In this document: piece after piece, positions 6,701 to 28,080 of the stretch
Layout: each line of letters opens with the position of its first letter
How positions within the stretch are numbered: the stretch's first letter is position 1
Notes under the pieces: generated by a model
The model's database searches: none
What the model was told of the DNA's origin: nothing
Seen by the model: only the letters and a program-made list of their open reading frames with translations
Assembly: GCF_020520425.1 (NCBI RefSeq)
Contig: NC_079489.1
Location: 15,648,001-15,712,000 of the forward strand
DNA: 64,000 nucleotides
Source of the DNA: Spinacia oleracea
Taxonomy: Eukaryota > Streptophyta > Magnoliopsida > Caryophyllales > Amaranthaceae
Direction of reading: 5' to 3'
Translations under genes and position numbers: made by a program

Positions 6701-9523
6701 GGAGCCGTTCGCTTTCTTGACCATCACCACGTTGGCCAACCATTTTGGGTACATGCATGGCTCGATGAATCCGGCCTCCTGCAACTTTTTCACCTCTTCG
6801 GCGATGGCTTTGTTTTTCTCCGAGGAGTAATTCCTCTTCTTTTGTTTGATTGGCCGAGCTTCAGCGTTGACGTCCAGCTTGTGACAAATCAGCTTCGGAT
6901 TTATCCCTGGCATATCTGCTGCTGACCATGCAAAAATGTCTTTGTGATCCCTGAGTAGTTGGATCAAATCGATTCGGAGCCCCGAGCTTAGGCCTTTGCC
7001 TATTCGGACGCTCCTGTCTGAACCTTCTTCGAGGAAGATATCCTCCATTTCTTGATCCGGTTCAGGAGACAGGGTTTCGGGGCGGGCATCGACTTCTGCG
7101 GGAGACAAGCTGCTCATGCCTGCCTTCCTCCTTTTTGCCTCACTCTCCTCTCTTGGAGCATCTTTCTCCGCCTCCGAACCGTCTCCTAACTTGGGCTTTC
7201 GGACGGCGGTGTGGCAGGTTCTTCTCGCAACCTCTTGATCACCTCTAATTCGTTCGGCGAATCCTGCGTCCGAGACGTATATCATCAGTTGATGGTATGT
7301 GGAGGGGACTGCCTGCATCTTGTGAATCATGGTTCTTCCCATGATTACGTTGTATACGGAGTCGCAGTCCATCACCAGGAATTCGTCCCGAAGGGTTTTT
7401 GCTGCTTGGCCTTCGCCCACTGTGACTGGCAAGGTGATCTTTCCTCGAGGGATAGCTGCGGATCCGTTGAATCCGATCAGGGGGTAGCTGACTTTCGTCA
7501 GTGCTTCCTCTGACTCTTCGAGGATCAGTTGCTCGAAGCAGTTTCTGAAGATGATGTTGACGGCACTTCCTCCGTCGACCAACACTCGGTGTACGTTGTG
7601 GTTATTGAGGTCCATGGAAATGACTAGAGGATCGTCATGTTTGTACTGGACTCCGAAGCAATCATCGGCAGTGAAGGTCATGTTCGGGGGGTGTGGTTGG
7701 TTGTCTCCCACTGCGCTGAAGTTGACTCGATGGGAGAGAGCTCTTAGGTGTTTCTTGCTGGCATGGCCAGACTTCTGTCCCCCGAACACCACTAGGATGT
7801 CATTCTTCTTGTGCATTGTTGCTTCGTAGACCCTTTTCTGGGGTTGCTCGTGTTGTTTGCCACTCGCGGCCTTTTCTTTTTCTTCCCTTCGGTCTAACAA
7901 GTACTGTTTCAGGTAGCCTCGGCGAACGAGGTCCTCAATGTTGTCTTTCAGCGAGTTACATTCTTCGGTGTGGTGACCGAAGTCATCATGAAACTCGCAC
8001 CATTTGTTCTTGTTTCTCCGAGCTGGGTTGGACTTGAGCTTCCCAGGTAGTTTCCACTGTTCATCATTTCTGTTGAGGCTAAAGATTTCTTTTCGGGGCA
8101 GAGTTAGTGGAGTGTAGTTAGTGTATCTGGGTTGAAGTTCACCCCTTCTCCCGTCTTTCTTCGGGCTCATCTCTCTAACTCCTACTTTCTCCTTCCCTTT
8201 CCTTGAGCCGCCCTCGGGCTTGCTCTGGGTATTTTTTGTTTCTCTCGGATCCGACGATCCTTTCAACCTTGCAGCGGCTTTGTTGAACTCTTCGGTTCTG
8301 ATGAACGCATCAGCCATTTGGAGCACGTCGGCTATTTTGGAGGGGTTTTTCATCGAGAGCTTATCACGGAATTTCCCTTCCTGGAGCGCGTGTTTCAAGG
8401 CGAAGATGGCCACATCTGGCTGTAAGTTTGGTATGCTTGTTGATTCCTTCATGAATCTGGCCATGAACTCTCTTAGACTTTCGTCTTTCTCTTGTTGGAT
8501 TGAGGTCAGTTCTGCCGTGGTTCGCTCGGGGCGATTGTTGCTCACGAACTGTGTGCAGAATCTCTTTTTCAGCTTCTTCCAGCTTTTGATCGATCCCTTC
8601 GGCAGCGATCTAAACCATTCTCCCGCTACTCCGGTTAGCGTGGTTGGGAAATATTTACACCAACATGCTTCGGAGTAGGGACTCAAGAACATTTGCTGCT
8701 CGTAGGAGATGACATGATCCCTTGGATCCGTGATTCCGCTATACGTCAGGTGTGCTGGCAGTCTTACCTTTGGTATCTCTTCCCTGATCAGCTCGTCCGA
8801 GAAAGGGGATGACGTGGGAGTCATGATTCTTTTCTCGAGTCTAGCCCTGATGCCCTCGTTCGCCGAGGTTCTGTGATTAGAATGTTCGGGCGTATGATGG
8901 GGGCTAGGGGTTCGGTCATGCCTCCTGTCTCTTCTTCTTTCTCGGCTACTGACCTCGGGTCGTTCGCCAGATCTTCTTGATTCGCCTACCCCGAGTCTCG
9001 TATGGATCGAGGGTCTTAACCTTGAGTGGACCGAAGGCCTCAACCTGCTGAGCACCGAGCTTCGGATCCGAGTGTTACGAGTAGTCGATTCGCTTTGGAG
9101 AGCTGTTGGAGTAGGCGATGGTTTTGCGAACCAATCTGGTTGTTGTTGTGCCCTTTTTTGGGTGTCCCACGTGCTTTCCATCCATCTCGACGTCAGGTGT
9201 GTTCCTGCCAAGGGGAGGAGCTCTCGTTCGGGTCTGGACACTTCTACACTGGGCTGCTCGTTCAGCCTTCGCCTGGTCCTCCTCTCTTCTCTGCGGTCTT
9301 TTGCCAATCCTTGCTGCTTCTCATTGAAGAGGAAGTTTTGCATAATGGTCATGGCCGCAGTGAGCTCTTCCCTAGTTGGAATCGGAGGTCCTGCGTTTGT
9401 GGCGGTCGTAGCCCTACTTGGCTGTGACCTCGCCATCGATTGAGGGTGCTCCTCTTCGTCAGATTCCGAATCTGACCGCACTATCATATCGTCATCATTA
9501 TTGTTGATAATATCATTAACCAT
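3771..9523 (-). pseudogene. gag-pol polyprotein of the gypsy element, interrupted
   Basis: One 1024-codon frame (9523-6449) holds gag, protease and the start of RT. Gag has the capsid-like block near residues 255-420 and a C-x2-H-x4-H-x4-C-like knuckle (CEFHDDFGHHTEEC) near residue 510. The protease motif is LVDGGSAVNII near residue 648, with DGGS where DTG/DSG is usual. RT begins near residue 880 with CVDFTDLNRACPKDCYPLP. TAG at 6449-6451 then interrupts RT. The same frame resumes with YVDDSIVKSI and the Ty3 RNase H. A single-base shift near 5628-5633 moves into the frame ending at 3771, which carries a second RNase H (VFTDGSSTINGSGAG), the integrase HHCC zinc finger (HIGGRTLAHKALR..CEKCQKF) and the core D (WGLDIIGP), D (VFDHGKQFD) and E (NGQAEAANK). 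The catalytic set survives apart from the two breaks. No joined protein is given. Confidence 0.92.
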
Positions 9524-9579
9524 TTTGCAGAAAGAGGTGGTTAATGTCTTTCAAAGGCTTTGAAGTGTTCTTCCCCACA

Positions 9580-10018: not shown

Positions 10019-10143
10019 GCGGATATTTTGGGTAAAGAAATATGGCAAAAAATAGTGCAGATTCTAATTGGGAAGAACATTTGGTAATGCCAAAAATAGA
10101 AACGGAAAGAACATTTAGGAACAGAGAGAGTAATAAAGAATAA

Positions 10144-10410
10144 CCTCAATTTTGCGACTGAGGTTAGATGGCTATATGAGAATTGACTCGAATTTCCCAA
10201 CTTTAATATTACTAGAAACAAATAGAAAAACCTCAATTTTGCGATTGAGGTTAGATGGCTATATGAGAATCGACTTGATTGTCCCGATTTTAACATTACT
10301 AGAAACTAATAAAGAACATCCTCAATTTTGCGATTGAGGTTAGACGGCTATATGAGAATTGACTCGAATGTTCCTACTTTGACATTACCAGAAACAAAAT
10401 CAGATATTCG
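10144..10410. repeat. Three tandem copies of an 87-89 bp unit
   Basis: Units start at 10144, 10231 and 10320, each beginning CCTCAATTTTGCGA and containing TTAGATGGCTATATGAGAAT (or a close variant). Each starts with a small hairpin (CCTCAATTTTGCGATTGAGG). The array lies between the gypsy LTR and the Helitron start. Its origin is unknown. Confidence 0.9.
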
Positions 10411-10719: not shown

Positions 10720-10729
10720 TATAAAATAT
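10720..10729. repeat. Left target-site duplication of the MULE
   Basis: TATAAAATAT here is repeated exactly at 28071-28080. The uninterrupted Helitron copy at 35120-35575 has this sequence once, at the corresponding place. MULEs typically make 9-bp duplications; the tenth base may be chance. Confidence 0.85.
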
Positions 10730-10745
10730 ACAAAAACTTGAATAA

Positions 10746-10756
10746 GGCGGACTGAC
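10746..10756 (+). repeat. Left subterminal inverted repeat of the MULE
   Basis: GGCGGACTGAC lies 16 bases inside the left end; the inverse copy lies 17 bases inside the right end (28043-28053). The GC-rich flank (10757-10830) contrasts with the AT-rich interior. Confidence 0.7.
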
Positions 10757-10854
10757 AGCGTCAGACGGGTGACGTGGCAGCGCGGGTCGTGACGAGGGTC
10801 AGGACGCGGGTCAAATCCGATTCGGGTCGAAAACGGTTATTTTTTCGGGTTTAG

Positions 10855-10863
10855 TATAAAAGG
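10855..10863 (+). promoter_or_regulatory. TATA box of the ULP-like gene
   Basis: TATAAAAGG lies about 110 bases inside the GC-rich left terminus of the MULE and upstream of a pyrimidine-rich leader. The position in the element's terminus fits MULE genes being driven from the ends. Confidence 0.6.
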
Positions 10864-11180
10864 TTTTCTTTCCCACGTTTTTGCCCATTTTCAAATCACT
10901 GTTCACTTTTAGAGAGAGAAACCGCCGAGTTCTTCCATTTCAGGAGAGAGAAAGCTTCTACTATTTGATCTTCTCTTCGATTTCTTCAATTTCTGTAAGT
11001 TTTTTGCATTTTCACTTGTTTTTCTTTGTTCGTGTGTAGTTCTTACTGATTTATCCTCTTTTTTTTCGTTCGATTTAGGGTTTTGAAGGTGTGATTGTGA
11101 TATTTTCCGATTTACTTCAAGTTTCGGTAAGTTCTTTCTATTTTCATCTACTTTTTGTTCAATTTTGTCATCATTTGATG

Positions 11181-11480
11181 TTCGTTTTGTTTCTTACTGT
11201 TTTTGGTTTTGATTTAGGGTTTTGTAATTGTGATTTGTGATAATTTTGGTTGTTCTTCATTTTCGACAATATTTTTGAAGTTTTGTTGTCATTTTTTCTT
11301 CTTTTTGTTCAATTTTGTTATCATTTGAAGTTCGTTTTTGTTTCTTACTGTTTTTGGTTGTGATTTAGGGTTTTGTAATTGTGATTTGTGATACTTTTGG
11401 TTGTTCTTCATTTTCGACAATATTTTTGAAGCTTCTTGTCCTTTTTCCTTCTTTTTGTTCAATTTGTTCATAATTTGAAG
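11181..11480. repeat. 150-bp tandem duplication in the ULP gene leader
   Basis: Two copies, starting at about 11181 and 11331, share TTTCTTACTGTTTTTGGTT, GATTTAGGGTTTTGTAATTG and CATTTTCGACAATATTTTTG. It lies in the non-coding leader, where GTAAGTT-like donors (about 10995, 11126) and TTTAG-type acceptors suggest 5' UTR introns. Confidence 0.85.
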
Positions 11481-12129
11481 TTTATTTTGGTGTTTTTGTT
11501 CAATTTGTTCAATTAAAAGTTCGCTGATAAATAATTAGTTTTTTAATCAATTAGTTAATTATTTTTACCAATTAGTTATTCTTTCAAAGCAATTAGTCAT
11601 ATTCTGACATTCATAAATCAAGTATTAAACAAATTAGTTAATTTATTTAATTTCAAACTTTCTTGAGCAATTAGTTCACTTTTTTGACCAATTAGTTAAT
11701 TGCATAATCCAATTAGTTAACTATTTTAACCTGTTAGTGAAACATTCAAAGCAATTAGTTACACAATGAACTTGTTTTGTTTTTATTGCTATTTATACTG
11801 CTTATGTTCATTACACATTCTTTTTATTTGCGCATTGCAATATATTGAACTACATTCATTTATAGTTTCAGTTCACATAATGAGGTCAAAAAATGCAAAC
11901 AAAGCATCTGATTATCACGATGCTGGGAAGTCGAGTCAAGATGTTGAAGGCAGTTCAAGGCCGACTGAAGATATTCCAGCTAGTCCAAAGCTGAGTGCAG
12001 ATGAGAGGAAAATTGGAAGGGGGCCAAAGAAGTCGAAAGTTAAAGTAGAATATACGGAAGATGGCGGGGAAGTTGTAGAGTTGGATAGGTATAACTCCTA
12101 TCTTTGTAACTGTTATTTATCACTGTTTA

Positions 12130-13005
12130 ATTAGTTGGATAGGTATGACTATTTAAAAATTGATTTTGCAATTATCATAACTTATTTTACATTTAGTGAA
12201 CTTTTTGCATAATTTAGTTAACTTTTGACTGCAATTAGTTAAATATTTTTCAGTAATTAGTTAACCTTTTTTAAAAAGAATCTTTCCACTAATTAGTTAA
12301 CTTTTTCCACTAATTAGTTAACCTTTTCCATTAATTAGTTAACTTTTGACTGCAATTAGTTAACTCAATAATTAGTTTACTTTTGAATGCAAATAGTTAA
12401 CTTTTTCCATTAATTAGTTAACCTATTTCATCAATTCGTTAACCTATTGCATGATTAGTGAAGTTTTTTTCAGTTAGTTAACCTATTTCATTAAATAGTT
12501 AACCTTTTTCTTCAATTAGTTAACCTATCTTTGTAACTGTTATTTATCACTGTTTAATTAGTTGGATAGGTATGACTATTTGTTATTTATTTTTAAATTA
12601 ATTACTTTTGCTTTGAAACAAATTATTTTACCTATATGAAGTAGTTATGTAATTAAAATAATTAGTTAACCTTTAAACACAATTAGTTAAATATTTTTCA
12701 GTAATTAGTTAACCTTTTTTTAAAAAGAATCTTTCCACTAATTAGTTAACTTTTTCACTAATTAGTTAACCTTTTACATTAATTAGTTAACTTTTGACTG
12801 CAATTAGTTAACTCAATAATTAGTTAACTTTTGACTGCAATTAGTTAACTTTTTCCATTAATTAGTTAACCTATTTTATCAATTAGTTAACCTATTGCAT
12901 GAATAGTGAAGTTTTTTGCAGTTAGTTAACCTATTTCATTAAATAGTTAACCTTTTTCTTCAATTAGTTAACTTCTTAAGCAATTAGTTAAATATTTTCA
13001 TTAAT
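12130..13005 (+). repeat. ATTAGTTAAC array in ULP gene intron 1
   Basis: Dense copies of AATTAGTTAACTTTTT and variants, organised as two diverged blocks about 440 bases apart (AAGAATCTTTCCACTAATTA occurs near 12278 and 12726). Copies of the exon 1 donor region (TTGGATAGGTATGACT) occur near 12134 and 12562. The array fills most of the 939-base intron. Confidence 0.92.
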
Positions 13006-13554
13006 TAAATTCTTTTGTTTTGTGTAGGGGTTACAAACTAAATTGTAGATCAGAGGCGTTGATTAATCTTCTTAATTCTATAAAGAAGAATGAAAACAAA
13101 GTGAAAGCCATTAAAGAGATAGGTTTTGGTGGTTTGTTGAGTGTTCGACTTCATGAAGTCAACACACTCCTTGTTCCATGGCTACTTCAACATTTTAATT
13201 GTGTTGGTCATATGCTCCAGTTTGGAGAAACACAAAATGTTCAGTTATATGATTATGATGTCTATGACGTCTTTGGCTTGCCATGGAACAAGGATTTTGA
13301 TGTTCAAGAGACGCCAAGAAAGAGGGTTGAAGGAGATGCCAACCATGAAATGATTCAAAGATGGAATGAGAAGTTCCACAAGAAACCAACTGTTCAGGCA
13401 CCCACCTTGACGGAGTTGGAATCTTTTTTGAAAACAGATGAATGTGGAGATGATTTTAAACGTGCCTTTGTGGTATATGTTTTAGGTAAAAATTCTAAAT
13501 TAATCATGCTCAAGTTATTTACCTTTAACAGCAAGTATATAGTTCACTATTTAC

Positions 13555-13760
13555 ATTAATTAGTTTACCTTTTTTTATTAATTATTCTTCTTTTTTCATT
13601 AATTAGTTCATTTTAATAATTAGTTTACCTTTTTTATCCATTAGTTACTGTTTTCATCAATCAGTTAACCTATTTTACATTTAGTTAACTTTCTTCATCA
13701 TTTAGTTAGCTTTTTACATTAATTAGTGAACTATTTTTATGAATTAGTTAACATATTATC
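13555..13760 (+). repeat. ATTAGTTAAC array in ULP gene intron 2, left part
   Basis: About ten degenerate copies between exon 2 and the inserted long-TIR MULE. The insertion at 13794 splits this intron, and exon 3 starts 13 bases after the insertion's right end. Confidence 0.85.
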
Positions 13761-13793
13761 TTATTGATTTCTGTAATTATCTTATTGTTTTTA

Positions 13794-15084
13794 CGGTTTT
13801 TTCATGAAATGCCCCTGAGGTTTCACGGAATGCACCAAATACACCTGCGTGTTTCAAATCACATAATATACCCCTATTTAAACTTATTTGCACCAGATGC
13901 CCCTAGACTTAACAGATGTCTAACGCCGTTAGTATTTAGTTTGAATTAGCCCTTAATTATCCTAATTAACCCTTAATTAACCTAATTAACCCTAAATTTA
14001 ACCATTTTTAATTATCTAATTACTTTTCATTAACTTTTTTTCCCCTTTTTTTTTCTTTTTTTTCTCATCTCTGACCTCTACTCTTCTTTGTTTTATCTCT
14101 CCTCTGGCCATCCACATTATTGCACTTCCCCGACCCAACCACCACCCTGACGCCGCCTCCTCTTCCTTCTTCTTCGGTCTTCTTGTTTTTGAGAAGCCAT
14201 TAATGCCCATATTTTAACAACAACCGACATCATCCCCGTTCACATCCATCCTCGAATCTCATAGAAAATGGAGTATTTAATCTTGAGTATTTCAGTAATT
14301 CAGTTGGTGAGATTCAATTGGGCACTTCCTTCCGGTGAGATTCAATTGGGAGTATTTAATCTTGAGTATTTCAATTGGTGCAATTCAATTGAGATTTACT
14401 TCCTTCTTCTTCGTTTTGCTGCAACTCCTCTAATCTCATCCATAATTCGTCCGATCTCCCATGAATTCACTCAAATATTACCAACAAAACTGACTAAATA
14501 AATCACACAATTTGATCAAAAATCAAGTATTAAAACACCACCCTTGTCAACTCCTCGCCCCCGCCGCTACTACTTCTCCGCCTCAAAATTTTTTTGTCCC
14601 CTTCATTAATACTCCGAATTGTAGAAATTGTAGAAATTGGGGTTTTAATTGGGGAGCAGTGGTGGTAATGTAATGTTGGAGGTAGGCAATCTGATCTGAT
14701 ATTGGGTTTGGAGGATGGAGTTGAAGGAAGAATGGAGAACAATGGAGTGTTGTTCTTGGTGAAGGGCACTGGAGAAGATGAATCATGAAAAGAGAAGGGA
14801 TCAAAAGATTAGAAATAATCGAAGAAAAGAGAAAGGAAAAAAGAAAAAAGAAAAAAGAAAATATTAGTTATATTTCATTGGAATTGATATAGGGTTAATT
14901 ATATGTAGTTAATAAGGTTAATTAAGGCTGATTATCGGCTAATCACTAACGGCGTTAGTCTTCCGTTAAATCCAAGGGTATTTGGTGCATTTTTTTAAAA
15001 ATAGGGGTATATTATGTAATTTGAAACACGCAGGTGTATTTGGTGCATTCCGTGAAACCTCGGGGGCATTTCATGAAAAAACCG
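13794..15084. mobile_element. Non-autonomous MULE with long terminal inverted repeats
   Basis: A perfect 9-bp duplication, TTGTTTTTA (13785-13793 and 15085-15093), flanks a 1291-bp element. Its ends, CGGTTTTTTCATGAAATGCC and the complement, belong to inverted repeats of about 150-200 bases (about 13794-13945 against 14930-15084, including CTAACGGCGTTAG near the inner edge). The interior is AT-rich with no credible gene. It is nested in intron 2 of the ULP-like gene; the right duplication supplies the T-run of the exon 3 acceptor (TTTTTATAG). Confidence 0.92.
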
Positions 15085-15774
15085 TTGTTTTTATAGGTGT
15101 ATTTTTGGCTCCTACGTCTAACCGGTTGTTAGACATCAAGGTTTTGAAGGTTGTTGAGGATGTTTCACAGATTGTGAAACAAAATTGGTGTAAATACGTG
15201 TTAAACCAGCTTGGGTTTGCTGTCGAGAGGTGGAGAGCGAGTGTCAAAAATGACAAGGTTGGTGGCTGTGTTCTATTTTTGGAGATAATTTATATCCAAA
15301 GATCGTTATTTCGGGGTGTAGTTCCCCCTAAGGAAATCCCACTTGTTTAACATTGGAATGATGAACAAGTGACTGAACGTCTGGTTTCCGAAGAGAAGAT
15401 GGGTTTTGGGGTAGCTTTGGTTGATATAACCAGCTATCCCGTGTCTAAGACTTTTGCTGATTTGTTAGGGGGTCTTAACCCTATCAAACTCGAGGTTCCT
15501 GAAGCTTCTGCTGCTCCTGAAGCTTCTTCTGCTCCTTCTGCTTCTGCTGCTCCTTCTGCTTCTGCTGCTCGTGCTGCTTCTGGTGCTCCTGCTGCTTCTG
15601 CTAAAGCTTCGGAAGGTGCACCGGGTAATTCCCAAGTTGATCGAAGCAGGATTATTGAGTTTCAAATTCCGGAAAGTGCTCAAACAGATGCTGAAATTCA
15701 AGCTACCTGCGATGATGTAAGTCATGATAATGTTCATATTTATTTTTGTTCATATTTAATGAATCTTTTTAATA

Positions 15775-16850
15775 GTTAACCTATTTTGTCAATTAGTTAA
15801 CTTTTGTTATGAATTAGTAAACCTTTTTATTCAATTAGTTAACCTGTACCATCAATTAGTTAACCTTTTTATGAATTAGTAAACCTTTTTATTCAATTAG
15901 TTAACTTGTACCATCAATTAGTTAACCTTTTTTATGAATTAGTAAACCTTTTTATTCAATTAGTTAACCTATTACAATAGTTAACCTTTTGCTTAAATTA
16001 GTTAACCTTTTACAGCAATTAGTCAACTTTTTCCATTAATTAGTTAACCAAGTGTTACTTGTTTTATGAATTAGTTAACCTATTTCAGCAATTAGTTATC
16101 TTATTTCATCAATTAGTTAACTTATTTTTTAATGAATTTTTCCAATCTTTCATCAATCCATCAATTAGTTAAGTTATTTAATCAAATAGATAACCCTTTC
16201 CTTTAATTAGTTAACGTTATACAACAATTAGTTAATGTATTTCATCAATTAGTTATCTTTTTTTTGTGTGAAGGAGTTCCTATTTTGCAATTAGTTAACC
16301 TTTTTTTATGAATTAGTAAACCTTTTTATTCAATTAGTTAACCTGTACCATCAATTAGTTAACCTTTTTATGAATTAGTAAACCTTTTTATTCAATTAGT
16401 TAACTTGTACCATCAATTAGTTAACTTGTACCATCAATTAGTTAACTTTTTTTATGAATTAGTAAACCTTTTTATTCAATTAGTTAACCTATCTCACAAT
16501 AGTTAACCTTTTGCTTAAATTAGTTAAGTTTTTACAGCAATTAGTCAACTTTTTCCATTAAGTAGTTAACCAAGTGTTACTTGTTTTATGAATTAGTTAA
16601 CATATTTCAGCAATTAGTTATCTTATTTCATCAATTAGTTAACTATTTTTCTCTATAAGTGAACTTATTTTTTAATGAATTTTTCCAATAGTTTCATCAT
16701 TCCATCAATTAGTTAAGTTATTTCATCGAATAGTTAACCTTTTCCTTTAATTAGTTAACTTTATACAGCAATTAGTTAATGTATTCCATCAAATAGTTAT
16801 CTTTTTCCATGAATTATATAATTGTTTAGATAATTCAATTAGTTAACTAT
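15775..16850 (+). repeat. ATTAGTTAAC array in ULP gene intron 3
   Basis: Two related blocks (about 15790-16260 and 16285-16885) share long runs of the same repeat variants, so the intron grew by a tandem duplication of roughly 500-600 bases. The left block ends with a copy of the true exon 4 acceptor context (GTGTGAAGGAGTT near 16266; real one at 16891). Confidence 0.92.
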
Positions 16851-17839
16851 TTAGCTGTTGTTTTCTTTTCTTAATATTTCTTTTTTTTTTGTGTGAAGGA
16901 GTTGCAATTGGCAATGAGAATATATTGTCGCGATTATGTTGTGTCCAGTTTCCATAAGGACCGTATAAATTTGTTAAAGAGTCGGCGACAAGAATTATCA
17001 GACAGTCCAGGATACAATGATCCTGTGTTTTTGGAGATAATTGACTCAATTGTTGCCTATGCTGAACACTTGAGAAACGAAAATAATGCTGTTGATGATA
17101 ATGCTCCTTCTCAAGCTGTTGATGGTGCTGCTGACAAGGGGCCAATTCAGGAGAATGTTGGTGCTGCTGACAAGGGTTCTGGTGATAATGGACCTGGTGA
17201 TAAGGGGCCAATTGAGAAAAATGTTGAAGGTTCTGGAAATGTTGCTCCCCAAGATGCTGAACCTGAACGAGAAGCTAGGAGTTTCTATAGCAGTCTTCCC
17301 ATTGGTTCTGCTACAGAAGAAGTCTTCTGCTTATCTGAGTTAATGGAGAGATTTCCGAAGACCCTCGGTCGTCTGAGGAGACTGGAAAAAGAAGTAATTG
17401 ACTTCTGTTTCTTGGATGATGAGGCACTTGATCAACGGTAAGTTAACAATTAGTTATCTTGTGAGATGAATTAGTTAACTATATATGTCATTTAGTTGAG
17501 ATTTTTACATAATTTAATATTTTCCTTATTTATTTGTTTTAATTTTTGTGTAACAGGGCTGATGTTTTTATTTTTGGGATGCTCCACAAAATAAATAGGG
17601 AGAAAATGCAATGTTTGATTCCTGAGGAATATATCTTATCCAACATTGTTGAGATTTGGTCTATTCTCTTGAACAAAAATCAGTTCATGTTGAATAAAGA
17701 ACAAAACAATTTCTATTTTGGTGTTGAGTACACGGTTAGTTTCTATTTTACGTAATTTTTTTTATTAATGTCCTTTACTTTTTTATGTTGTATCGTTTAA
17801 ATAATGAGTTACTTATCTTTTTACCACAATTATTATTTT

Positions 17840-18560
17840 TTTACATCAATTAGTTAACATTTTCCATCAAGTAGTTAACTTTTTAACTTTTTAAATCATT
17901 TAGTTAACTTGTTCTGACAATTAGTTAACCTTTTCAAACAATTAGTTAAGTTTTTCCATCAATTACCTACACTGTAAAGTAACTAGTTTTGTATTCATTT
18001 CAATTAGTTTGTGGTATTATTAGTTAATTTTTGCTATCAATTAGTTAACTTTTTCTATCAATTAGTGAACTTTTTCTATCAATTAGTGAACTTTTTCTAT
18101 CAATTAGTTAACTTTTTCTATCAATTAGTGAACTTTTTTTATCAATTAGTTTCCCATGAATTAGTTATTCTATTAAGGTACCTAGGTTTGTATTCATTTC
18201 AGGTAGTTTGTTGTACATTTAGTTAACCTTTTCTATCAATTAGTGAACTTTTTCTATCAATTAGTTAACATTTTCTATCAATTAGTGAACTTTTTTTATC
18301 AATTAGTGAACTTTTTCAATCAATTAGTTAGCCTTTTCCATGAATTAGTTATACTATTAAGGTACCTAGTTTCGTATTTACTTCAGTTAGTTTGTTGTAC
18401 AATTAGTTAACTTTTTCTATCAATTAGTTAACTTTTGCAATCAAATAGTTAACTATTTCTATCAACTAGTTAACTTTTTCCATGAATTAGTTATCTTTTT
18501 CCATCAATTAGTTACACATGAAAGTACCTAGTTTTGTATTCAGTTCAGTTAATTTGTTTA
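17840..18560 (+). repeat. ATTAGTTAAC array in ULP gene intron 5
   Basis: Includes a very regular run of TCAATTAGTTAACTTTTTCTA-type units of about 21 bases (18030-18145) and three repeats of a longer block with CTATTAAGGTACCTAG and GTATTCATTTCAG. That block recurs in inverted orientation at 20985-21150 and 23205-23625 in the other half of the element. Confidence 0.92.
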
Positions 18561-19204
18561 TACTGTTTTCTAATTAAATTTGGTTTTTTGCTTATGCCAG
18601 AGGAAGCTTGAAGGTGCTCTTAAGACGAAGTCAGCTGAATCTCTAAATCAAATTATTGATGAACTTATCAATAGTTGGAAATATTGGGTGCAAATCAATG
18701 ACCACAGATTCAATCTGAAAAATGTGGGAATGGTAAGTTGGTATTTTGGTAGTTATGCCTTTATATGTAATAGTTAATTTGTGATATTAAATAGTTAAGT
18801 TTTTATATATTTTAGTTTGATTTTTCTTACTTTTTTCCCTTGATTCATTTGCAGTTTTTCTTTCCCATTATTTACCAAGAACACCTCTCTCTGTTGATTG
18901 TCAACATAAATCAGAGAAGTCTTGTCTATGTTGACAACATAATTTGGAGTAAGAAGATTCATGATGATTATATGGCAATGGTGTCATTGCTTATTGAAGG
19001 ATTTGCACAGTTTCTGCTAGAGATTGGCCATGCGGCTGCTGCTGATTGCTTAAATTTTGAAATGTCAATTCTGGACTTTGCTGGGAGATCAGATAACCCT
19101 GATCATGTAGATTGCGGAATTTTTTTGATGACAGCAATGCAGTACTTTAATGGCAAAAATATTCCCATGGACCTTTCCTATGTAAGTCTACTTCAGTTAA
19201 GATT

Positions 19205-19920
19205 TTCAAGCAATTAGTTTATCTTTTCTAGTTTCAATAGTTTCAAATTAAGTATTTCATGAATTAGGTAACCTTTTTTCTTCAATTAGTTAACTTATTA
19301 CTTCAAATAGTTAACCTTTTTTCAGTTAGTTTACTTTTTACATTAATTAGTTCACCTTTTGCATCCATTAAGCCTTTAACAATAATTAGTTAACTTTTTC
19401 CATCTATTAGTTAACTTGTCCCATCAATTAGTTATCTTTTTCATCAATTAGTTATTGTTTTAACTTTTTAACAACTTTTTCTATCAAGTAGTTAATCAAT
19501 TTAGGTAACTTTTTACTGGAATTAGTTAACTTTTTACTACAATTAGTTAACTTTTTACAGCAATTAGTTAACTTTTTACAGCAATTAGTTAACTTTTTAC
19601 AACAATTAGTTAACTTTTTACTGCAATTAGTTAACTTTTTATAGCAATTAGTTAACTTTTAACAGCAATTAGTTAACTTTTTACTGCAATAAGTTAACTT
19701 TTTACAGCAATTAGTTAACTTTTTATAGCAATTAGTTAACTTTTTACAACAATTAGTTAACTTTTTACAACAATTAGTTAACTTTTTACTGCAATTAGTT
19801 AACTTTTTATAGCAATTAGTTAACTTTTAACAGCAATTAGTTAACTTTTAAATTTATTAGTGAACTTTTTACAGCAACTAGTTAACTTTTTTAATCTATT
19901 AATAAACCTATTTTTTGTTT
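19205..19920 (+). repeat. ATTAGTTAAC array in ULP gene intron 7, with a near-perfect 21-bp array
   Basis: From about 19505 to 19850 there are about 16-17 units of the form CAATTAGTTAACTTTTTACAG (21 bases) differing at one or two positions, the most homogeneous array in the element and so probably the youngest. The rest is degenerate. The array ends about 50 bases before the exon 8 acceptor. Confidence 0.93.
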
Positions 19921-20463
19921 CATACAATCAGTATTTAGTACACATACGGTACAAGGACAATGTTACGGGCTAAGATTTGTTTAACCTTAGTCCTTTCTGA
20001 TATGAATGAAATTCGGGCTGATGTGCTGGAGGAAATGGAATCATTCAACATGATTAAAGTTGGTATTTCCCATGCTGTTCGTGATCGCCGAAAGAAAAAG
20101 AAAGAAGAAGAAGAAAGACAGAGAAAAGAAGCAGAAGCAAAGAAGAAGCTAGAAGAAGAAGAGGCTGTAAAGTTGAAACAGCGGGCTGATTTAAAAAAGG
20201 CTGAAACTACAAGGAAAAGGTTAGAAACAATTGTAAAAAGAAAAGCAGCGGCCCAAGAGAAGCCAGAAGGAAATGACAATGCTCCTTTGAGAACATACAA
20301 GTCATCAAGGCGAATTGCCAAGAACAACGAACCAGTGGTAGCAGCTGAAGCAGTGCCAACAGTAGAAGCAGTGCCATTCTCTGATATGGATCAAAACAAA
20401 GCTACTGTTGCACCGAAACAAAATAGACCAAAAGTTGTTCATCATAAGCCACCTTCCAGTTAA

Positions 20464-22465
20464 TCAGTAAACTTATCTATCAGGTTGTTTTTAGTTGTTA
20501 TTTAGTAAACAATTTATATGTGAATATTTTTATTAACTGCTTTGTTTAGTTGATATATTTTGAGAATAGGTGCTTTAAAACAGAAATTTAATCTTTGAAT
20601 ATTTTGGGCAAGTAGCTCTTTTGGTATATATATATTTAGTAGGAGCTTATTTTGAATTATTTACTTGATATATTTCATAAGGATTAAATTCAATTAGTTA
20701 AATATCAAATTCAATTAGTTAACTAATTGATGCAAAAAGTTAACTAATTGATGGAAAAGGTTAACTTATAGATTGTAAAGGTTAACTAATTGATGCAAAA
20801 AGTTAACTACTTTTAGGTTAACAATATTAGTTAAACATAATCATCCTGCATATTGTGACATCAAGAATAATTATAGTAACTTAACTTTTGAAAATAAAAT
20901 CAATTTGTTAACTTATTAAGGGAACACGTTAACTAATTGATGGTACAAGTTAACTAATGGATGAAAAAATTTAACTAATTGTACAACAAACTAACTGAAG
21001 TGAATACAAAACTAGATACCTTAATAGAATAACTAATTCATGGAAAAGGCTAACTAATTCATAGAAAAAGTTCACTAATTGATAGAAAAAGTTAACTAAT
21101 CGTACAACAAACTAACTGAAGTGAATACAAAACTAGGTACCTTAATAGAATAACTAATTCATGGAAAAGGGTAACTAATTGATAGAAAAAGTTCATTAAT
21201 TGATAGAAAAAGTTAACTAATTGATAGCAAAAGTTAACTAATTGATAGCAAAAGTTAACTAATAATACTATAAACTAATTGAGGGAACAAGTTAACTAAT
21301 TGATGGAAAAATTTAACTAATTGATGAAAAAGTTAACTAATTGAGTGAACAAGTTAATTAATAGATGGTACAAGTTAACTTATTGATGATAAAAGTTAAC
21401 TAATTTTTAGAAAAAGGTAACTAATTGATGATAAAAGTTAACTAATTTTTACAAAAAGGTAACTATTTGAGGGAAAACGTTAACTAATTGAGGGAGCTTA
21501 TTTTGAATTATTTACTTGGTATATTTCATAAGTCAGTCAATCTAATTCAATATATTAGTTAAGCATTAAATTCAATTAGTGAAATATCAAATTCAATTAG
21601 TTAAAACTTATTAATGAAAATAGTTAACTAATTGCTGCAAAAAGTTAACTATTTGGTGGAAAAGGTTAACTAATTGATGGTAAAGGTTAACTAAAGAGTG
21701 GTAAGTTCAACTAATTGATGCAAAAAGTTAACTAATTTTAGGTTAACAATATTAGTTAAATATAGTCATCCTGCATATTGTGACCTCAACAATAATTACA
21801 GTAACTTGACTTTTGAAAATGAAATCAATTAGTTAACTAATTGAGGGAACAAGATAACTAATTGATGAAAAAAGTTAACTAATTGAGGGAACAAGTTAAA
21901 TAATTTTTATAGAAAGGTAACTAATTGATGGGAAAAGTTAACTAATTGATAGAAAAAGTTAACTAATTGCTGAAAAAAGTTAACTAATTGATGGAAAAGG
22001 TTAACTAATGCATTGTAAGGTTAACAATATTAAATAATTGAGGGAAGAAGTTAACTAATTGCTATAAAAAGTTAACTAATTGCTGTAAAAAGTTAACTAA
22101 TTGTAGTAAAAAGTTAACTAATTGCGGTAAAAAGTTACCTAAATTGATTAACTACTTGATAGAAAAAGTTGTTAAAAAGTTAAAACAATAACTAATTGAT
22201 GAAAAAGATAACTAATTGATGGGACAAGTTAACTAATAGATGGAAAAAGTTAACTAATTATTGTTAAAAGCTTAATGGATGCAAAAGGTAAACTAATTAA
22301 TTGCTGAAAAAAGTTAACTAATTGATGGAAAAAGTTAACTAATGTATTGTAAGGTTAACAATAATAAATAATTGAGGGAAGAAGTTAACTAATTGAGGGA
22401 ACAAGTTAACTAATTGCTGGTACAAGTTAACTAATTTGATAAACACTAAATTTAATCCAATGTCA
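20464..22465. repeat. Convergent intergenic region filled with inverted-orientation arrays
   Basis: Between the two stop codons, from about 20690 the repeat reads GTTAACTAATTG on the plus strand, opposite to the left half. The switch passes through the perfect palindrome CAATTAGTTAACTAATTG (20712-20729). A block of about 840-920 bases is tandemly duplicated (GAGCTTATTTTGAATTATTT near 20644 and 21485). Two copies of the transposase exon 6 acceptor context (CATCCTGCATATTGTGAC) sit at about 20843 and 21768. No gene is seen; poly(A) sites of both genes must lie here. Confidence 0.88.
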
Positions 22466-23104
22466 CTAAAAAAGTTGTTCTTTTGGTGTAAAAGTTCCAA
22501 ATTCTGTAGGTGCTGTTGACGATGTCCTTATCTCAAAGAATCTTTTTTTTCTTTTACTTCTTCCTTTTGTATTCACTAGTGGTGGATTTTCAACTATTAT
22601 TTGTGGTGCATTTGATGATGATGATGTAGACGGTGCTATGTTGATTGTGGTTTGTTGTGCTTCAGCATCGTCTTGTGCCTTTTGTGCTGCCTCCTTTTCT
22701 GTTGCTTTTTCTTTTTCTAGAACCTTATTTATGCTTTCGTTAGCATGAGCATAAGCCTCTTTAAGCACCTATTAGTTAAGATTTAAAGCAAACTAGTTAG
22801 ACTCTTGAAGTAATTAGTATTTATTGTTATGTATTAGTTAAATAATAGTTATTAAAAACCTTTTTAGCTGCATCACTCCCTTGACATTTAATAACCAAGT
22901 TGTACAAATTTCTTGCCATCTCATAACGCCATGGAGTAATTTTTCTCTTTTCTGTTCCATTATCTTCTCTATGTTCCATTCTCTTCCATACTTCACTTTT
23001 TGCAAACTTTGTCCACCTTTTTGAAATGTATTGCTCTGGAATGTTGACAATAGAATGTATATGTAGAACTCGTATTGCATGGAAACATAGCCATCCTGCA
23101 TATT

Positions 23105-23725
23105 GTGACATCCAAATATTAACTAATTGATGAAAAAAGTTAACTAATTGATAGTAAAAGTTCACTAATTGTTAGAAAAAGTTAACTAATTAATGAATAA
23201 AGTTAACTAATTGTACAACAAACTAACTGAAGTGAATACAAAACTAGGTACCTTAATAGTATAACTAATTCATGGAAAAGGCTAACTAATAGATAGAAAA
23301 AGTTCACTAATTGATAGAAAAAGTTAACTAAGTGATGAAAAAATTAATTAGTAGATGGTACAAGTAAACTAATTGATGAATAAAGTTAACTAATTGTACA
23401 ACAAACTAACTGAAGTGAATACAAAACTAGGTACGTTAATAGTATAACTAATTCATGGAAAAGGCTAACTAATTGATAGTAAAAGTTCACTAATTGTTAG
23501 TAAAAGTTAACTAATTGATGAAAAAATTAATTAATAGATGGTACAAGTAAACTAATTGATGAATAAAGTTAACTAATTGTACAACAAACTAACTGAAGTG
23601 AATACAAAACTAGGTAACTTAATAGTATAACTAATTCATGGAAAAAGCTAACTAATTGATAGAAAAAGTTCACTAATTGATAGAAAAAGTTCACTAATTG
23701 ATAGTGTATGTAAAAATGCAATTAG
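23105..23725 (-). repeat. Repeat array in transposase intron 5
   Basis: On the plus strand the units read GTTAACTAATTGATGAAAAA. Three tandem blocks of about 185 bases contain TACAACAAACTAACTGAAGT (near 23215, 23398 and 23579). The same block in reverse complement is in ULP intron 5. Confidence 0.92.
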
Positions 23726-24149
23726 TTAAGAGCATTAACTAACCTGATTCTTCGAAGTTCCTACAAGTGCATTTAATGGAATTTGTTGTTGGATCAAATG
23801 CTACATAATGGGCAGTATGTTCAGGCCAAGATTCATGTTGCACTTTGTAACCAAAGAAATTTCCATTGATGTAGTTGACATTTGAGATGCAACCCATTGC
23901 ATACTTGAATTCTTTTTCAAAATCTCTAAACAATGTAAGTGTGTAAACATTTGCCGCATGTTTTATCATTCCGACCATTGGAAAATCAGATTTAGGCAAA
24001 GCATTTCCACAATCATATTCATTTTGATCTTCTTGATATCTCCAACGATCCACTGTTGCTCCAAAAATGTGAAAGAATTCTGTTAGTGAAGTTGATTTGT
24101 TCCCTTTAAATCCAATAGCATTGTTAGTGCTCTCACTCCTGTGTAACAA

Positions 24150-24440
24150 GATTGAATTAGTTAAACATTTTATTTAATTAGTTAAGTAGGTACAGGAATT
24201 AGTTAAGCAAACAAAGGAACTAGTTAAGAAGGTGAAACATTTAGTTAAACATTTTGTTTAATTAGTTAATCTTTCTGATTAATTAGTTAAGCAGGCAAAG
24301 AAATTAGTTAAGTAGATGAAACAATTAGTTAAACACTGTGAAGTATTCAAAGCAATTAGTGAAGTATTCATAGTAATTAGTGAAGTATTCATAGCAATTA
24401 GTGAATTATTCTGAGCAATTAGTTTAGCATTAAAAAAATT
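24150..24440 (+). repeat. Repeat array in transposase intron 4 (plus orientation)
   Basis: Units read ATTAGTTAAG/AAC on the plus strand, so they are antisense to the transposase transcript, unlike most arrays in this gene. Units are diverged, with spacing of about 25-35 bases. Confidence 0.85.
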
Positions 24441-24829
24441 AGTGGACTTCTTTTATTTAAGCATTTACCTTTGTGAAGACAATATTCCAGCTGAGAAAAA
24501 ATCTTTGTTCAAAGCTGTACACCATTTTTCTTTTATTGTATAGAGATTTGTAAACCAATCATGATCTTGAAGGTTATACTTAGTAATCATGTCAAACCAA
24601 GTGGTTTCAAATTCTTCTTCATTGTAACAACGATATAAGCACTTCTTGAATGTGTCTTTGAATGTATTGTCAGCTTTTAAGTCTCCAAATCTTGACACAA
24701 CATTCTTTTGTAAGTGCCATAAGCATAATCTATGTCTTGTATTAGGAAATACCTGCAATTTTTTTGATGAATGATGTATTAGTTAAGAATTTAAACTATA
24801 TAGTTAAGTCAGAACAGAATTCTGTATTA

Positions 24830-25140
24830 GTTAGGAATCTGAAAATGATGCAAAAAGTTAACTAATTCATGCAAAAAGTTAACTAATTCATGCAAAAAGG
24901 TAACTAATATATTATTAAAACAAAAGTTAACTAGTTCATGCAAAAACTTATCTAATTCATTGCAAAAGTTAACTAATTGATTCAAAAAGTTAACTAATGT
25001 ATGTAATAGGATAACTAATTGATGGAAAAAGTAACTGATGAATGGATATCAATTTAGTTAAACTTTTCAACTCATTAGTTAAAGACCAGTAGCAAATAGT
25101 TAACAATTTTTAGCAATTAGTTAACTATAAAACCCAAATA
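24830..25140. repeat. Repeat array in transposase intron 3, mixed orientation
   Basis: GTTAACTAATTCATGCAAAA units up to about 25035, then ATTAGTTAA units in the other orientation up to exon 3. The change of orientation inside one intron suggests internal inversion or template switching. Confidence 0.85.
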
Positions 25141-25734
25141 GTTAATACACTCTTACTTGTTCAATAGCATTTGCCATTGCTTGATCTTGATCTGTAAAGA
25201 TAGTTATAGGTGCTTTGCCTCCCATAGAGTCCAGAAATGTTTCCAATAGCCACACAAAAGTGTGTGTCTTCTCATCAGCAATAAAAGCACAACCAAACAT
25301 CACATTACTCCAATGGTTGTTGACACCTACAAATGGCGCACAAACTAAATTGTATTTGTTTGTTCTGAAAGTTGTGTCAAAGACACAGACATCACCATAT
25401 ATGTCATAATCTTCTTGCATCATTCCATCCCTCCAAAACATGCTTATTACTTGGTTTGCCTCGTTCACCTTTACTCGAAAGTAAAAGTTTGGATCTTCTT
25501 CTCCTCTCTTAATTAACATGTTCACAACTGCTTGTGTATCTTTTCCTTCTAGTCTTTTCATTTTCAATCTACTTGTGAAATTCATGTGGTCAACTAATGT
25601 GTGTCCAACGACCCTTGCGTCGCCAGCTTCATTACACATATATCTATAGGAATCTGCTGGTGTTATTCCTGATAGTGTGAGTCCTTCAATTACTTTTCCC
25701 TTTTCTTCATCAATTTTTCTTTGTGATCTGGAAA

Positions 25735-26170
25735 TGATGCAAAACGTTAACTAATTGTTGTAAAAAGTTAACTAATATATACAAAAAGTTAACTAATATG
25801 TGCAAAAAGTTAACTATTTGTTGTAAAAGGTAAATAACTAATATATTATTAAAATAAAAGTTACCTAATTCATGCAAAAACGTAACTAATTGATTGAAAA
25901 AGTTAACTAATTGATGAAAAAGTTAATTTATGGTTTTAGGAAGTAAGTAATTGAGGTAAAAAGTAAACTAATTGATGCAAAACATTAACTAAATGTTTTA
26001 AAAAGTTAACTAATGCATGGAAAAGGTTAACTAATTTATGAAAAAAGTTAAGTAATTGATGGAAAAAGGTAAGTAACTGTTTTATCTAGTTTATTATTAA
26101 AACAAAATTATTTAAACGCTTAAGTAATTAATGTCACAGCCTAACTAAATATATTTAATGGTTAACTAAT
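25735..26170 (-). repeat. Repeat array in transposase intron 2
   Basis: AGTTAACTAAT units on the plus strand, spaced 20-25 bases and moderately diverged, filling the intron between the FAR1 domain exon and the catalytic exon. Confidence 0.9.
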
Positions 26171-26659
26171 TACTTGTATTTTGTTTTGTACCTTTCAAAG
26201 TTTTGCAGTGACTCTCTTGTTAAGGCATGATTGTGTTCTATAACATGATGAAAGACTATAAACTTTCCATCCTTTTGTAACTTCAATCGTATAGATGCGT
26301 TGCACCCTGTTCTAGTAAGGTTTTGCTGCCTTGCGTTCTTTGACTGCTCTTTCTGTTTGCTCTCACTTGATACAGTTGCTTCTTCTTTCTTTGTGTTCTT
26401 TGTGTTTTCCTTTCTCTTTCCTTCCTTTGAACAACAAAAGTATCTTTCCTTTATCTCTCCCGTTTTTTTTATCTCTCCTTAATGTGTTTTTTCTTATTGA
26501 AAATCCAAGAAGTATTGAATGTTTGTCATAAAGTTCATGTAGTTCATCTACAGTGCCAGTATATCCAGTCAAAGGTCCTCTAATATCATCCTCTGTTAAA
26601 TCGTTCCAAATATCTTTTGAACCTGTAAAATGAACAAAAGTAATAATTAACAAAAGAAA

Positions 26660-27235
26660 CTAATTAGTTACATAATTCAGGAAATTAGTTAACCAATTGA
26701 ACTAATTGAGAGAACAAGTTAACTAATTGATGATAAAAGTTAACTAATTAAGGGAACAACTTAACTAATTGATGGTACAAGTTAACTAATTAAGGGAACA
26801 AGTTAACTAATTGATGGTACAAGTTAACTAATTGATGATAAAAGTTAACTAATTGATGATAAAGGTTAACTAATTGATGATAAAAGTTAACTAATTGCTT
26901 CAAAAAGTTAACTATTTGGTGGAAAAGGTTAACTAGTTGCTTCAAAAAGTTAACTATTTGGTGGAAAAGGTTACCTAAATGATGGTAATGGTTAACTTAG
27001 TGAAAAATGAAATTTGAAAAGTAGCTTTAAAAAAAATTAGTTTAGTATTGGTATTAATTAGTTAAGTTCTTACAGAAATCAGTGATTTATTTAAATTAAA
27101 AGTTCCTTTATATATTATTTAGTTTATTATCCAATTAGTTAACTATTTTTACCAGTTAGTGATTCTTTCAAAGCAATTAGTTAACCAATTTGTTTAGTTT
27201 TTTACCCGCTTAGTTAATTATATTCATTAAATTAA
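26660..27235. repeat. Repeat array in transposase intron 1
   Basis: GTTAACTAATTGATGATAAA units at 26690-27000, then plus-oriented ATTAGTTAA units at 27050-27230. The outer part (TTTTTACCAGTTAGTGATTC) matches a segment near 11565 at the other end of the element in the same orientation. Confidence 0.9.
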
Positions 27236-27975
27236 TTTTAAAACCTGAAAAATAAGCTGATGTTGTTTCTCCTGTTGTTGCAGAACTTGTTTCAGATGTG
27301 TTTTCCTTTGTTCCAGAACTTGTTTCAGTAGTTACTTGCTGCAATGTTGTAAAAGCCCTTTGATTAGGGTTATCAAATTGCGCAGAAGGTTGAAATCGAG
27401 AAGGAGGATGAAGATCGCTTTGATAATGGTTATCAAAACGGGCAGGAGGTTGAAATCGAGGAGGAGGATGAAGGTCGCTTTGGTTAGGGTTATCAAATCG
27501 CGCAGGAGGTTGAAAACGAGGAGGAGGATGACGGTCGCGAGGTTGAAAAATCGGTGGTGGTAGAAATCGAGGATGTTGAAGGTGGCGAGGTTGAAAATTC
27601 GGTGGTGTTACAAATCGAGGAGAATGTTGAAGGTGGCGAGGTTGAAAACTCGGTGGTTGAAATTGTGGCGGAAACATCTGTGTTGGTTGTTGAAATTGTG
27701 GCGGAAATAATGGTGGTGGTGGTTGAAAGCCGTCGGCCATGTCTGATCTGAAAGTTGTCGGCGGTGATTGTGGCGGAAATATCGGTATTGGTGGCTGAAA
27801 TTGCTCATAGCCGCCGTCGCCCATGTCGGATCTGAAAGTTGTTGGCGGCGATTGCGGCGGAGCAAGCTGAATAATTTCGCGAAATTAGATTAGGGTTTGA
27901 GAAAGGATGTCGCTGTTGTGAAGGAGGAAGGAGGAAGGAGGAAGGAGGAAGAGAGAGAAAGAAAACGCGCTGTTT

Positions 27976-27986
27976 CGTATTTATGT
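27976..27986 (-). promoter_or_regulatory. TATA-like box of the transposase gene
   Basis: The minus strand reads ACATAAATACG about 155 bases upstream of the ATG at 27824 and about 85 bases inside the right end, mirroring the left promoter. A GA-rich leader follows. Confidence 0.45.
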
Positions 27987-28042
27987 GGCGCGTGAAGCCC
28001 ACGCGCGCGTGGGGGAGTCAGCGGACTGACAGGCGCGTGGCC

Positions 28043-28053
28043 GTCAGTCCGCC
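28043..28053 (-). repeat. Right subterminal inverted repeat of the MULE
   Basis: The minus strand reads GGCGGACTGAC, matching 10746-10756. A third similar string (GCGGACTGAC at 28021-28030, plus orientation) makes a small local inverted repeat at this end. Confidence 0.7.
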
Positions 28054-28070
28054 TGACAGAAAACGCGCTG

Positions 28071-28080
28071 TATAAAATAT
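28071..28080. repeat. Right target-site duplication of the MULE
   Basis: TATAAAATAT is identical to 10720-10729. The Helitron sequence resumes directly after it (GTAAACATAG.., then TTAGATGATTAAATAAGTAT as in the other copies). Confidence 0.85.

What the first reader, a model, noticed from the sequence alone, without database searches (positions are those of the whole stretch)
11500..27235. One short repeat (ATTAGTTAAC) has colonised the introns and the intergenic gap of a single transposon
Seen: arrays of AATTAGTTAACTTTTT-type units of 20-25 bp in ULP introns 1, 2, 3, 5 and 7, in transposase introns 1-5, and in the 2-kb gap. No such array occurs elsewhere in the window. Exons are spared. This is neither a satellite nor an ordinary microsatellite: it is an element-wide, intron-restricted repeat. 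I know of no described system of this kind.
Basis: seen in the sequence. Interest (0 to 1): 0.85.

Follow-up and report, generated by a model that had tools for sequence, protein, structure and literature searches.

The report
Transposon-wide arrays of a helix-phased motif
A plant jumping gene carries over a hundred copies of a short DNA word in its non-coding parts, laid out like the docking sites that other transposons use to escape silencing by the host; here it occurs in a different transposon lineage, and a distant relative carries a different word.

Summary
ATTAGTTAAC occurs 133 times in the window against 0.33 expected, all inside one Mutator-like element (10730-28070, 10-bp target duplication). 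Sites lie in introns, the intergenic gap and the 5' leader, mostly 21 bp apart (two helix turns); exons and two later insertions are spared. The genome (894 Mb, very likely spinach) holds about 30 close copies; 30 of 30 fetched carry the arrays. Eight fetched relatives (59-85% identity in ULP exon 2) keep the core AATTAGTTAA and the 21-bp step, with other spacers in the more distant six. One fetched distant relative (30%) has arrays of another word, TAGTTAC, at 20-bp steps.

The claim that no such system is described is wrong. Arabidopsis VANDAL elements carry family-specific motif arrays in the same places, bound by the VANC proteins they encode, which remove DNA methylation from the element (PMC5735166). 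The ULP protein here resembles VANC (Ulp1 domain; only sub-threshold DUF1985 and plant-mobile-domain matches), but the transposase is FAR1-type. Best reading: a VANC-like anti-silencing platform in another MULE lineage. Binding and demethylation are inferred, not shown. Among close copies the motif is no more conserved than its surroundings, which counts against strong current selection.

The parts
10730..28070 (.). whole Mutator-like element (17,341 bp including a nested insertion)
   Evidence: colinear, 97-98% identical blocks with second copy C1:7510549-7531015; both stop at the same element base
10720..10729 (.). 10-bp target site duplication TATAAAATAT, left
   Evidence: second copy has its own 10-bp duplication GTTTACGTTT
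28071..28080 (.). target site duplication, right
10730..10900 (+). left terminus and presumed ULP promoter region; the extreme ends do not match each other, but GGCGGACTGAC occurs near both
11500..11879 (+). ULP 5' leader with sparse motif sites
   Evidence: 6 sites up to 1 mismatch in 10850-11879, all in 11500-11999
11880..12088 (+). ULP exon 1
   Evidence: hand-made spliced model, GT-AG introns
12089..13027 (+). ULP intron 1, motif array
   Evidence: 29 sites up to 1 mismatch
13028..13485 (+). ULP exon 2 (DUF1985/PMD-like region, first part)
   Evidence: third codon positions vary most in 30 copies
13486..15096 (+). ULP intron 2, short motif array plus nested insertion
   Evidence: 6 sites
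13795..15083 (.). nested insertion with 9-bp duplication TTGTTTTTA, absent from the second copy, no motif sites
15097..15716 (+). ULP exon 3 (second part of DUF1985/PMD-like region); one in-frame stop in this copy
15717..16898 (+). ULP intron 3, motif array
   Evidence: 46 sites
16899..17437 (+). ULP exon 4
17438..17556 (+). ULP intron 4, 2 sites
17557..17734 (+). ULP exon 5
17735..18600 (+). ULP intron 5, motif array
   Evidence: 23 sites
18601..18732 (+). ULP exon 6
18733..18854 (+). ULP intron 6, no sites
18855..19181 (+). ULP exon 7, Ulp1 protease core (Peptidase_C48)
   Evidence: PF02902 E=4.4e-07 for the open frame, 1.3e-07 for the spliced protein
19182..19938 (+). ULP intron 7, very regular 21-bp array
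   Evidence: 26 sites; TRF 18.7 copies at 89%
19939..20463 (+). ULP exon 8
20464..22465 (.). gap between the two convergent genes, motif array mostly on the - strand
   Evidence: 9 + and 52 - sites
22466..22768 (-). transposase exon 7
22769..22859 (-). transposase intron 6, 3 sites
22860..23095 (-). transposase exon 6, end of SWIM region
   Evidence: PF04434 E=9.2e-05 in the spliced protein
23096..23743 (-). transposase intron 5, motif array with 183-bp higher-order repeat
   Evidence: 19 sites; TRF
23744..24138 (-). transposase exon 5
24139..24468 (-). transposase intron 4, motif array in reverse orientation
   Evidence: 7 + sites, 0 -
24469..24752 (-). transposase exon 4
24753..25156 (-). 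transposase intron 3, motif array
   Evidence: 11 sites
25157..25727 (-). transposase exon 3, MULE domain
   Evidence: PF10551 E=5.1e-20
25728..26191 (-). transposase intron 2, motif array
   Evidence: 11 sites
26192..26622 (-). transposase exon 2, FAR1 DNA-binding domain; frame broken in this copy
   Evidence: PF03101 E=1.4e-13
26623..27244 (-). transposase intron 1, motif array
   Evidence: 19 sites
27245..27824 (-). transposase exon 1, repetitive proline-rich
27988..28039 (.). cluster of four CACGCGC words at the transposase end (recalled FHY3/FAR1 binding site); four at the same end of copy 2

Best explanation
The arrays are a binding platform for a DNA-binding protein that the element itself encodes, most likely the product of the ULP gene (DUF1985/plant-mobile-domain-like region plus Ulp1 protease domain). 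The protein reads AATTAGTTAA(C) sites set two helix turns (21 bp) apart, so that many molecules line up on one face of the DNA. By loading on the non-coding parts it keeps or makes the element free of silencing marks, as VANC does for Arabidopsis VANDAL elements. Exons are spared because they must code; arrays grow and shrink by whole 21-bp units and so stay in phase. Relatives diverge by changing word, step and spacer, which would make each family's system act on itself only. Shown: anatomy, motif, phase, whole-unit turnover, presence in the fetched family copies, a second word in one distant relative, gene content. Inferred: that the ULP product binds, and that binding removes methylation.
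For: 133 exact sites versus 0.33 expected; 1 site in 5,788 exon bp versus 202 in 8,155 intron bp. 163 of 237 neighbour spacings are exactly 21 bp. In 117 middle units chosen only by their neighbours, all eleven positions of A-ATTAGTTAAC agree at 84-99%, while 8 of the 10 other positions are below 84%. 6 of 9 indels of 5 bp or more between two copies are exactly 21 bp; 11 of 25 deletions against the consensus in 20 intron-1 copies are 21 bp. 30 of 30 fetched close copies have the arrays. In 2 of 2 fetched relatives at 82-85% and 6 of 6 at 59-73% the core AATTAGTTAA and 21-bp partners persist; in the six the spacer and often the tenth base differ. L052 (ULP exon 2 at 30%, transposase exon 3 at 57%) has TAGTTAC 88 times in 7,247 bp and 0 times in 2,753 bp mapped as coding, most often at 20- or 40-bp steps, and no AATTAGTTAA. 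ULP gene: Peptidase_C48; sub-threshold PMD (2.7e-4) and DUF1985 (0.014) in its exon 2-3 piece, DUF1985 0.0013 in the L051 relative. Third-position excess in exon 2 of 30 copies (0.033 versus 0.010 and 0.011) points to selection on the protein. Published precedent for this array layout: PMC5735166 Results.
Against: No binding, methylation or expression data. Among 20 class A intron-1 copies the motif columns are as variable as the rest (0.0115 versus 0.0120; 429 of 939 shifted masks as low), so no current selection on the motif is seen; between two whole copies the difference is only 34 of 3,854 versus 70 of 5,375 (Fisher p 0.07). DUF1985 and PMD scores are below Pfam cut-offs; the L046 piece matches PMD only, and the scan of the whole spliced ULP protein lists PMD (0.0021) but no DUF1985 at E up to 10. 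The ULP gene is broken in both whole copies read. One distant lineage (L051+L053, ULP 33%) shows no such arrays in 11.9 kb, so arrays are not universal in ULP-bearing MULEs. In L052 the core is not clearly sharper than the spacer (26 units). The structure model was unusable (pLDDT 37.6).
Confidence: 0.62

Rival explanations
1. The arrays are binding sites for the element's own FAR1-domain transposase, serving transposition or autoregulation rather than anti-silencing.
For: A DNA-binding domain is present (PF03101). The CACGCGC words named below lie at one end only, so they do not explain how the other end would be bound.
Against: FAR1/FHY3 proteins bind CACGCGC (recalled), and four such words cluster at the transposase end, 27988-28039, four also at that end of copy 2, with one elsewhere in the window; the motif arrays are internal, with no site in the first 770 or last 570 bp of the element at up to 1 mismatch (500-bp bins). 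Since the ULP and transposase genes travel together, family comparison alone cannot decide which protein reads the motif.
Confidence: 0.13
2. Selfish or neutral minisatellite expansion: slippage and unequal exchange in AT-rich non-coding DNA, homogenised between introns, with no function; exons are spared simply because expansions there would break the element.
For: Whole-unit 21-bp indels; higher-order units in the gap and introns; motif not less variable than the rest among recent copies.
Against: Core and 21-bp phase are kept in families whose ULP exon 2 is only 59-73% identical while spacers differ; the same short word occurs in 12 of 13 introns, the leader and the gap; two later insertions have not been invaded; one distant relative has equally widespread arrays of another word.
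Confidence: 0.17
3. An RNA-level role: the repeats act in splicing of the element's introns (branch-point-like or enhancer words).
For: Most sites lie in introns and mostly in the sense orientation of the gene.
Against: 61 sites lie in the gap between the genes; transposase intron 4 is reversed (7 to 0); in 5 of 6 class C loci an array after exon 2 runs in the opposite direction. Use in either orientation fits double-stranded DNA binding.
Confidence: 0.05

Closest known systems
VANC target arrays of Arabidopsis VANDAL21 and VANDAL6 (Hosaka 2017, PMC5735166; abstract and Results section read)
   Same: Short motif (YAGTATTAY; AGTTGTCC/AGTTGTAC) at high density, arrayed in the same orientation, in introns, intergenic and terminal non-coding parts; family-specific; tandem repeats that gain and lose units; an element-encoded protein with DUF1985.
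   Different: Here the transposase has a FAR1 domain; two convergent genes and no vanB seen; word ATTAGTTAAC; mostly 21-bp phase; arrays in 12 of 13 introns; function untested.
Ulp1-carrying VANDALs / Kaonashi (KIU) MULEs (review PMC13317346, passages read; the 2022 EMBO J paper is not held and was not read)
   Same: Ulp1 domain in an element protein of a non-TIR MULE; reported motif-specific hypomethylation of related elements.
   Different: Those are VANDAL-type; here the transposase is FAR1-type.
Jittery-group MULEs (group 36 in PMC6446971, passages read)
   Same: Plant MULE with N-terminal FAR1 and, often, a SWIM domain.
   Different: The table passage read lists one ORF and no VANC-like gene for that plant group; this element has a convergent DUF1985/PMD-like-Ulp1 gene and arrays.
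ULP1-bearing MULEs of grapevine (PMC2528002, section 8 and passages read) and of melon and rice (seen only as a citation)
   Same: MULE with an ULP1-like region, in some families opposite to the transposase.
   Different: No intron motif arrays are mentioned in the parts read.

Membership tests
VANDAL transposons | VANDAL-clade (MURA-like) transposase | tested here: not met
   Transposase carries a FAR1 domain (PF03101 E=1.4e-13), listed for the plant Jittery group and not in the VANDAL row of the table passage in PMC6446971; judged by domains only, no tree was built.
VANDAL transposons | three genes vanA, vanB, vanC | tested here: inconclusive
   Only transposase and ULP genes recognised between the ends; a small or unusual gene could be missed.
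VANDAL transposons | no or short degenerate terminal inverted repeats, about 9-bp duplication | tested here: met
   Extreme ends do not match; duplication is 10 bp in 2 of 2 copies; no long inverted repeat by seed search or local alignment.
VANC-type anti-silencing system | family-specific short motif in dense tandem arrays in non-coding parts, exons spared | tested here: met
VANC-type anti-silencing system | related families have different target motifs | tested here: met
   Class C loci change spacer and often the tenth base; L052, one element read, has TAGTTAC arrays. That these are targets is inferred.
VANC-type anti-silencing system | arrays gain and lose whole units between copies | tested here: met
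   6 of 9 indels of 5 bp or more are 21 bp; intron 1 ranges 601-1277 bp in 28 copies
VANC-type anti-silencing system | element encodes a DUF1985 (with or without Ulp1) protein | tested here: inconclusive
   Peptidase_C48 met; DUF1985 E=0.014 (window piece) and 0.0013 (L051), both below cut-off, absent for the L046 piece and for the whole ULP protein.
VANC-type anti-silencing system | protein binds the motif and removes DNA methylation from the element | not testable with these tools
   needs ChIP-seq or EMSA and bisulfite sequencing

The most novel reading that the evidence does not exclude
Sequence-specific anti-silencing is not a VANDAL peculiarity: a second, FAR1/Jittery-type MULE lineage carries the same kind of module (DUF1985/PMD-like-Ulp1 protein plus helix-phased target arrays), and one genome holds at least two mutually exclusive versions of it (ATTAGTTAAC at 21 bp; TAGTTAC at 20 bp), each confined to its own element family.
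Probability: 0.5. Interest if true: 0.8.

Novelty: new variant of a known kind. Interest (0 to 1): 0.6.

Why it matters
If true, targeted escape from DNA methylation by transposons arose or spread beyond VANDAL elements, and related families with different words and steps in one genome give a natural series for asking how a protein and its DNA word change together. Each pair would be a candidate sequence-specific tool for removing methylation in plants. The 21-bp versus 20-bp step makes the role of helix phase directly testable.

Tried and rejected
Satellite or microsatellite: rejected, the arrays follow the non-coding parts of one element family, so far as read. Splicing role: disfavoured by the gap arrays and flipped arrays. 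Spread of the repeat into any inserted DNA: rejected, 0 sites in the nested insertion and 0 in the 4,290 bp tested of a 4.3-kb insertion in copy 2. Terminal inverted repeats: none found by seed search or local alignment. Structure of the DUF1985/PMD-like region: model unusable, so no fold search was made. A weak repeated TAGTGAC word in L051+L053 was looked at and is not an array. Selection on the motif among close copies: not seen. Searches with the element's left end, meant to find copies without genes, did not complete (first asked, last); the right end was not asked for. A second L052-like element and the 3' half of a class C element could not be fetched.
Full report
Observation. ATTAGTTAAC occurs 133 times in the window, against a mean of 0.33 in shuffles. 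I built gene models by hand, without RNA data: an 8-exon ULP gene on the + strand and a 7-exon transposase gene on the - strand, converging; all 13 introns are GT-AG. Sites with up to one mismatch: 202 in 8,155 bp of introns, 61 in 2,002 bp of gap, 6 in 1,030 bp of leader, 1 in 5,788 bp of exons, 2 in the other 46,749 bp. Sites run mostly + through the ULP gene and mostly - through the gap and transposase gene, with transposase intron 4 reversed. 163 of 237 close neighbours are exactly 21 bp apart.

The element. A second copy at C1:7510549-7531015 matches in three blocks at 97-98% identity and ends at the same bases, each copy with its own 10-bp target duplication. The window copy holds a nested insertion that copy 2 lacks; copy 2 has a 4.3-kb insertion that the window copy lacks. 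Neither shows a motif site, so inserted DNA was not colonised. In the window copy the ULP frame has one stop and transposase exon 2 a frame break; in copy 2 the joined transposase exons read open and the ULP gene is broken differently. Transposase domains: FAR1, MULE, SWIM. ULP domains: Peptidase_C48, and sub-threshold plant mobile domain and DUF1985 matches in its exon 2-3 piece. DUF1985 is one of two VANC domains named in PMC5735166.

How the arrays behave. Middle units picked only because both neighbours carry the motif (117 units) show A-ATTAGTTAAC as the conserved part (84-99% per position); 8 of the 10 remaining positions are lower, one at 44%. Two copies differ by nine indels of 5 bp or more in the aligned blocks, six of them exactly 21 bp and all six in non-coding DNA. 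In 20 intron-1 copies of similar length (of 28 with both flanking exons) 11 of 25 deletions against the consensus are 21 bp. Against function: in the same 20 copies motif columns vary as much as the others.

The genome. G000 has 894,210,420 bases in 242 contigs; the spinach Monoe-Viroflay assembly is given as about 894.3 Mb in 307 contigs before scaffolding (PMC8668906, passage), so spinach is very likely, though not proved here. ATTAGTTAACTT occurs 2,910 times against 495 for the reversed word. The first 100 places listed run to 61.8 Mb of C1: 80 fall in copy 2, 20 are single sites (the same 80 counted in the fetched DNA). The window copy holds 83. About 30 such copies would account for the excess; that is an estimate, since only two copies were read whole.

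Relatives. The ULP exon-2 search scored 150 of 626 candidates. I sorted hits by identity. Class A (91% or more, 32 hits): 30 of 30 fetched (L012-L041, 3.4 kb each, including the window and copy 2) have 11 or more exact sites. Class B (81-87%, 5 hits): 2 of 2 fetched have the same word. Class C (59-78%, 17 hits typed): 6 of 6 fetched (59-73%) have AATTAGTTAA-type arrays with partners at 21 bp, other spacers, and often another tenth base; in 5 of 6 an array after exon 2 runs in reverse. Class D (about 27-35%): L052 has arrays of TAGTTAC, most often at 20 or 40 bp, in its non-coding parts, none in DNA mapped as coding, and no AATTAGTTAA; in its 26 middle units core and spacer are about equally conserved. 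L050 (4 kb) has no ATTAGTTAAC-type array, and L051+L053 (11.9 kb) has no array of either word. The FAR1-type transposase exon pairs convergently with the ULP exon: 28 of 32 class A, 1 of 5 B, 10 of 17 C, and 22 of 22 in a chosen subset of D (coordinates typed in part, pairing limited to typed hits within 45 kb, so misses are not proof of absence).

What is known. PMC5735166 (Results read) shows that VANC21 binds YAGTATTAY arrays in non-coding parts of VANDAL21, that VANC6 acts on elements with AGTTGTCC/AGTTGTAC, that motifs are dense and in one orientation, and that arrays evolve as tandem repeats. PMC10398659 (abstract, introduction and passages read) adds that these arrays contract and expand and that RNA-directed DNA methylation targets the non-coding regions. 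Review PMC13317346 (passages) reports Ulp1-bearing VANCs. I recall, from an abstract not seen here, that the 2022 EMBO J paper found motif sequence, density and helical periodicity to matter; it is not held. PMC6446971 (passages) puts FAR1-bearing Jittery MULEs and VANDALs in separate groups. My paper searches, judged from listed titles and starts of abstracts, showed no paper on such arrays in a FAR1-type MULE; most subscription papers are not in the library.

Judgement. The array anatomy matches a VANC-type system in each array feature tested here; the protein match is only partial (Ulp1 yes, DUF1985 sub-threshold), and the carrier is not a VANDAL by its transposase domains. I therefore file it as a new variant of a known kind, with the anti-silencing function probable but untested. 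The transposase as reader of the arrays is less likely because CACGCGC words, the FAR1-type site as I recall it, cluster at the transposase end instead, though only at that end.

Noticed in passing
window 13795-15083: Nested insertion with similar inverted ends (CGGTTTTTTCATGAAATGCCCC...) and a 9-bp duplication TTGTTTTTA; present in the window copy, absent in copy 2.
   Followed up: partly
window 11072-11489: About 150-bp tandem repeat in the ULP leader, of a different kind from the 21-bp arrays.
   Followed up: no
window 20909-21343, 23122-23702 and ULP intron 5: Higher-order units of 121-183 bp; by eye, blocks like GTACCTAGTTTTGTATTCACTTCAGTTAGTTTGTTGTACAATTAGTTAAC recur in introns of both genes and in the gap, suggesting exchange between distant parts of the element.
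   Followed up: no
window 27988-28039: Four CACGCGC words, the binding site recalled for FHY3/FAR1, at the transposase end; four also at that end of copy 2; none at the left end.
   Followed up: partly
window 10131-10395: Three 87-bp tandem units outside the element's left end.
   Followed up: no
window 6449-9550 and 29276-30127: Long frames that read, by eye, like retrotransposon gag/reverse transcriptase (- strand) and a copia-like polyprotein (+ strand).
   Followed up: no
L052: A compact relative in which a long open frame runs on into a 20-bp array.
   Followed up: partly
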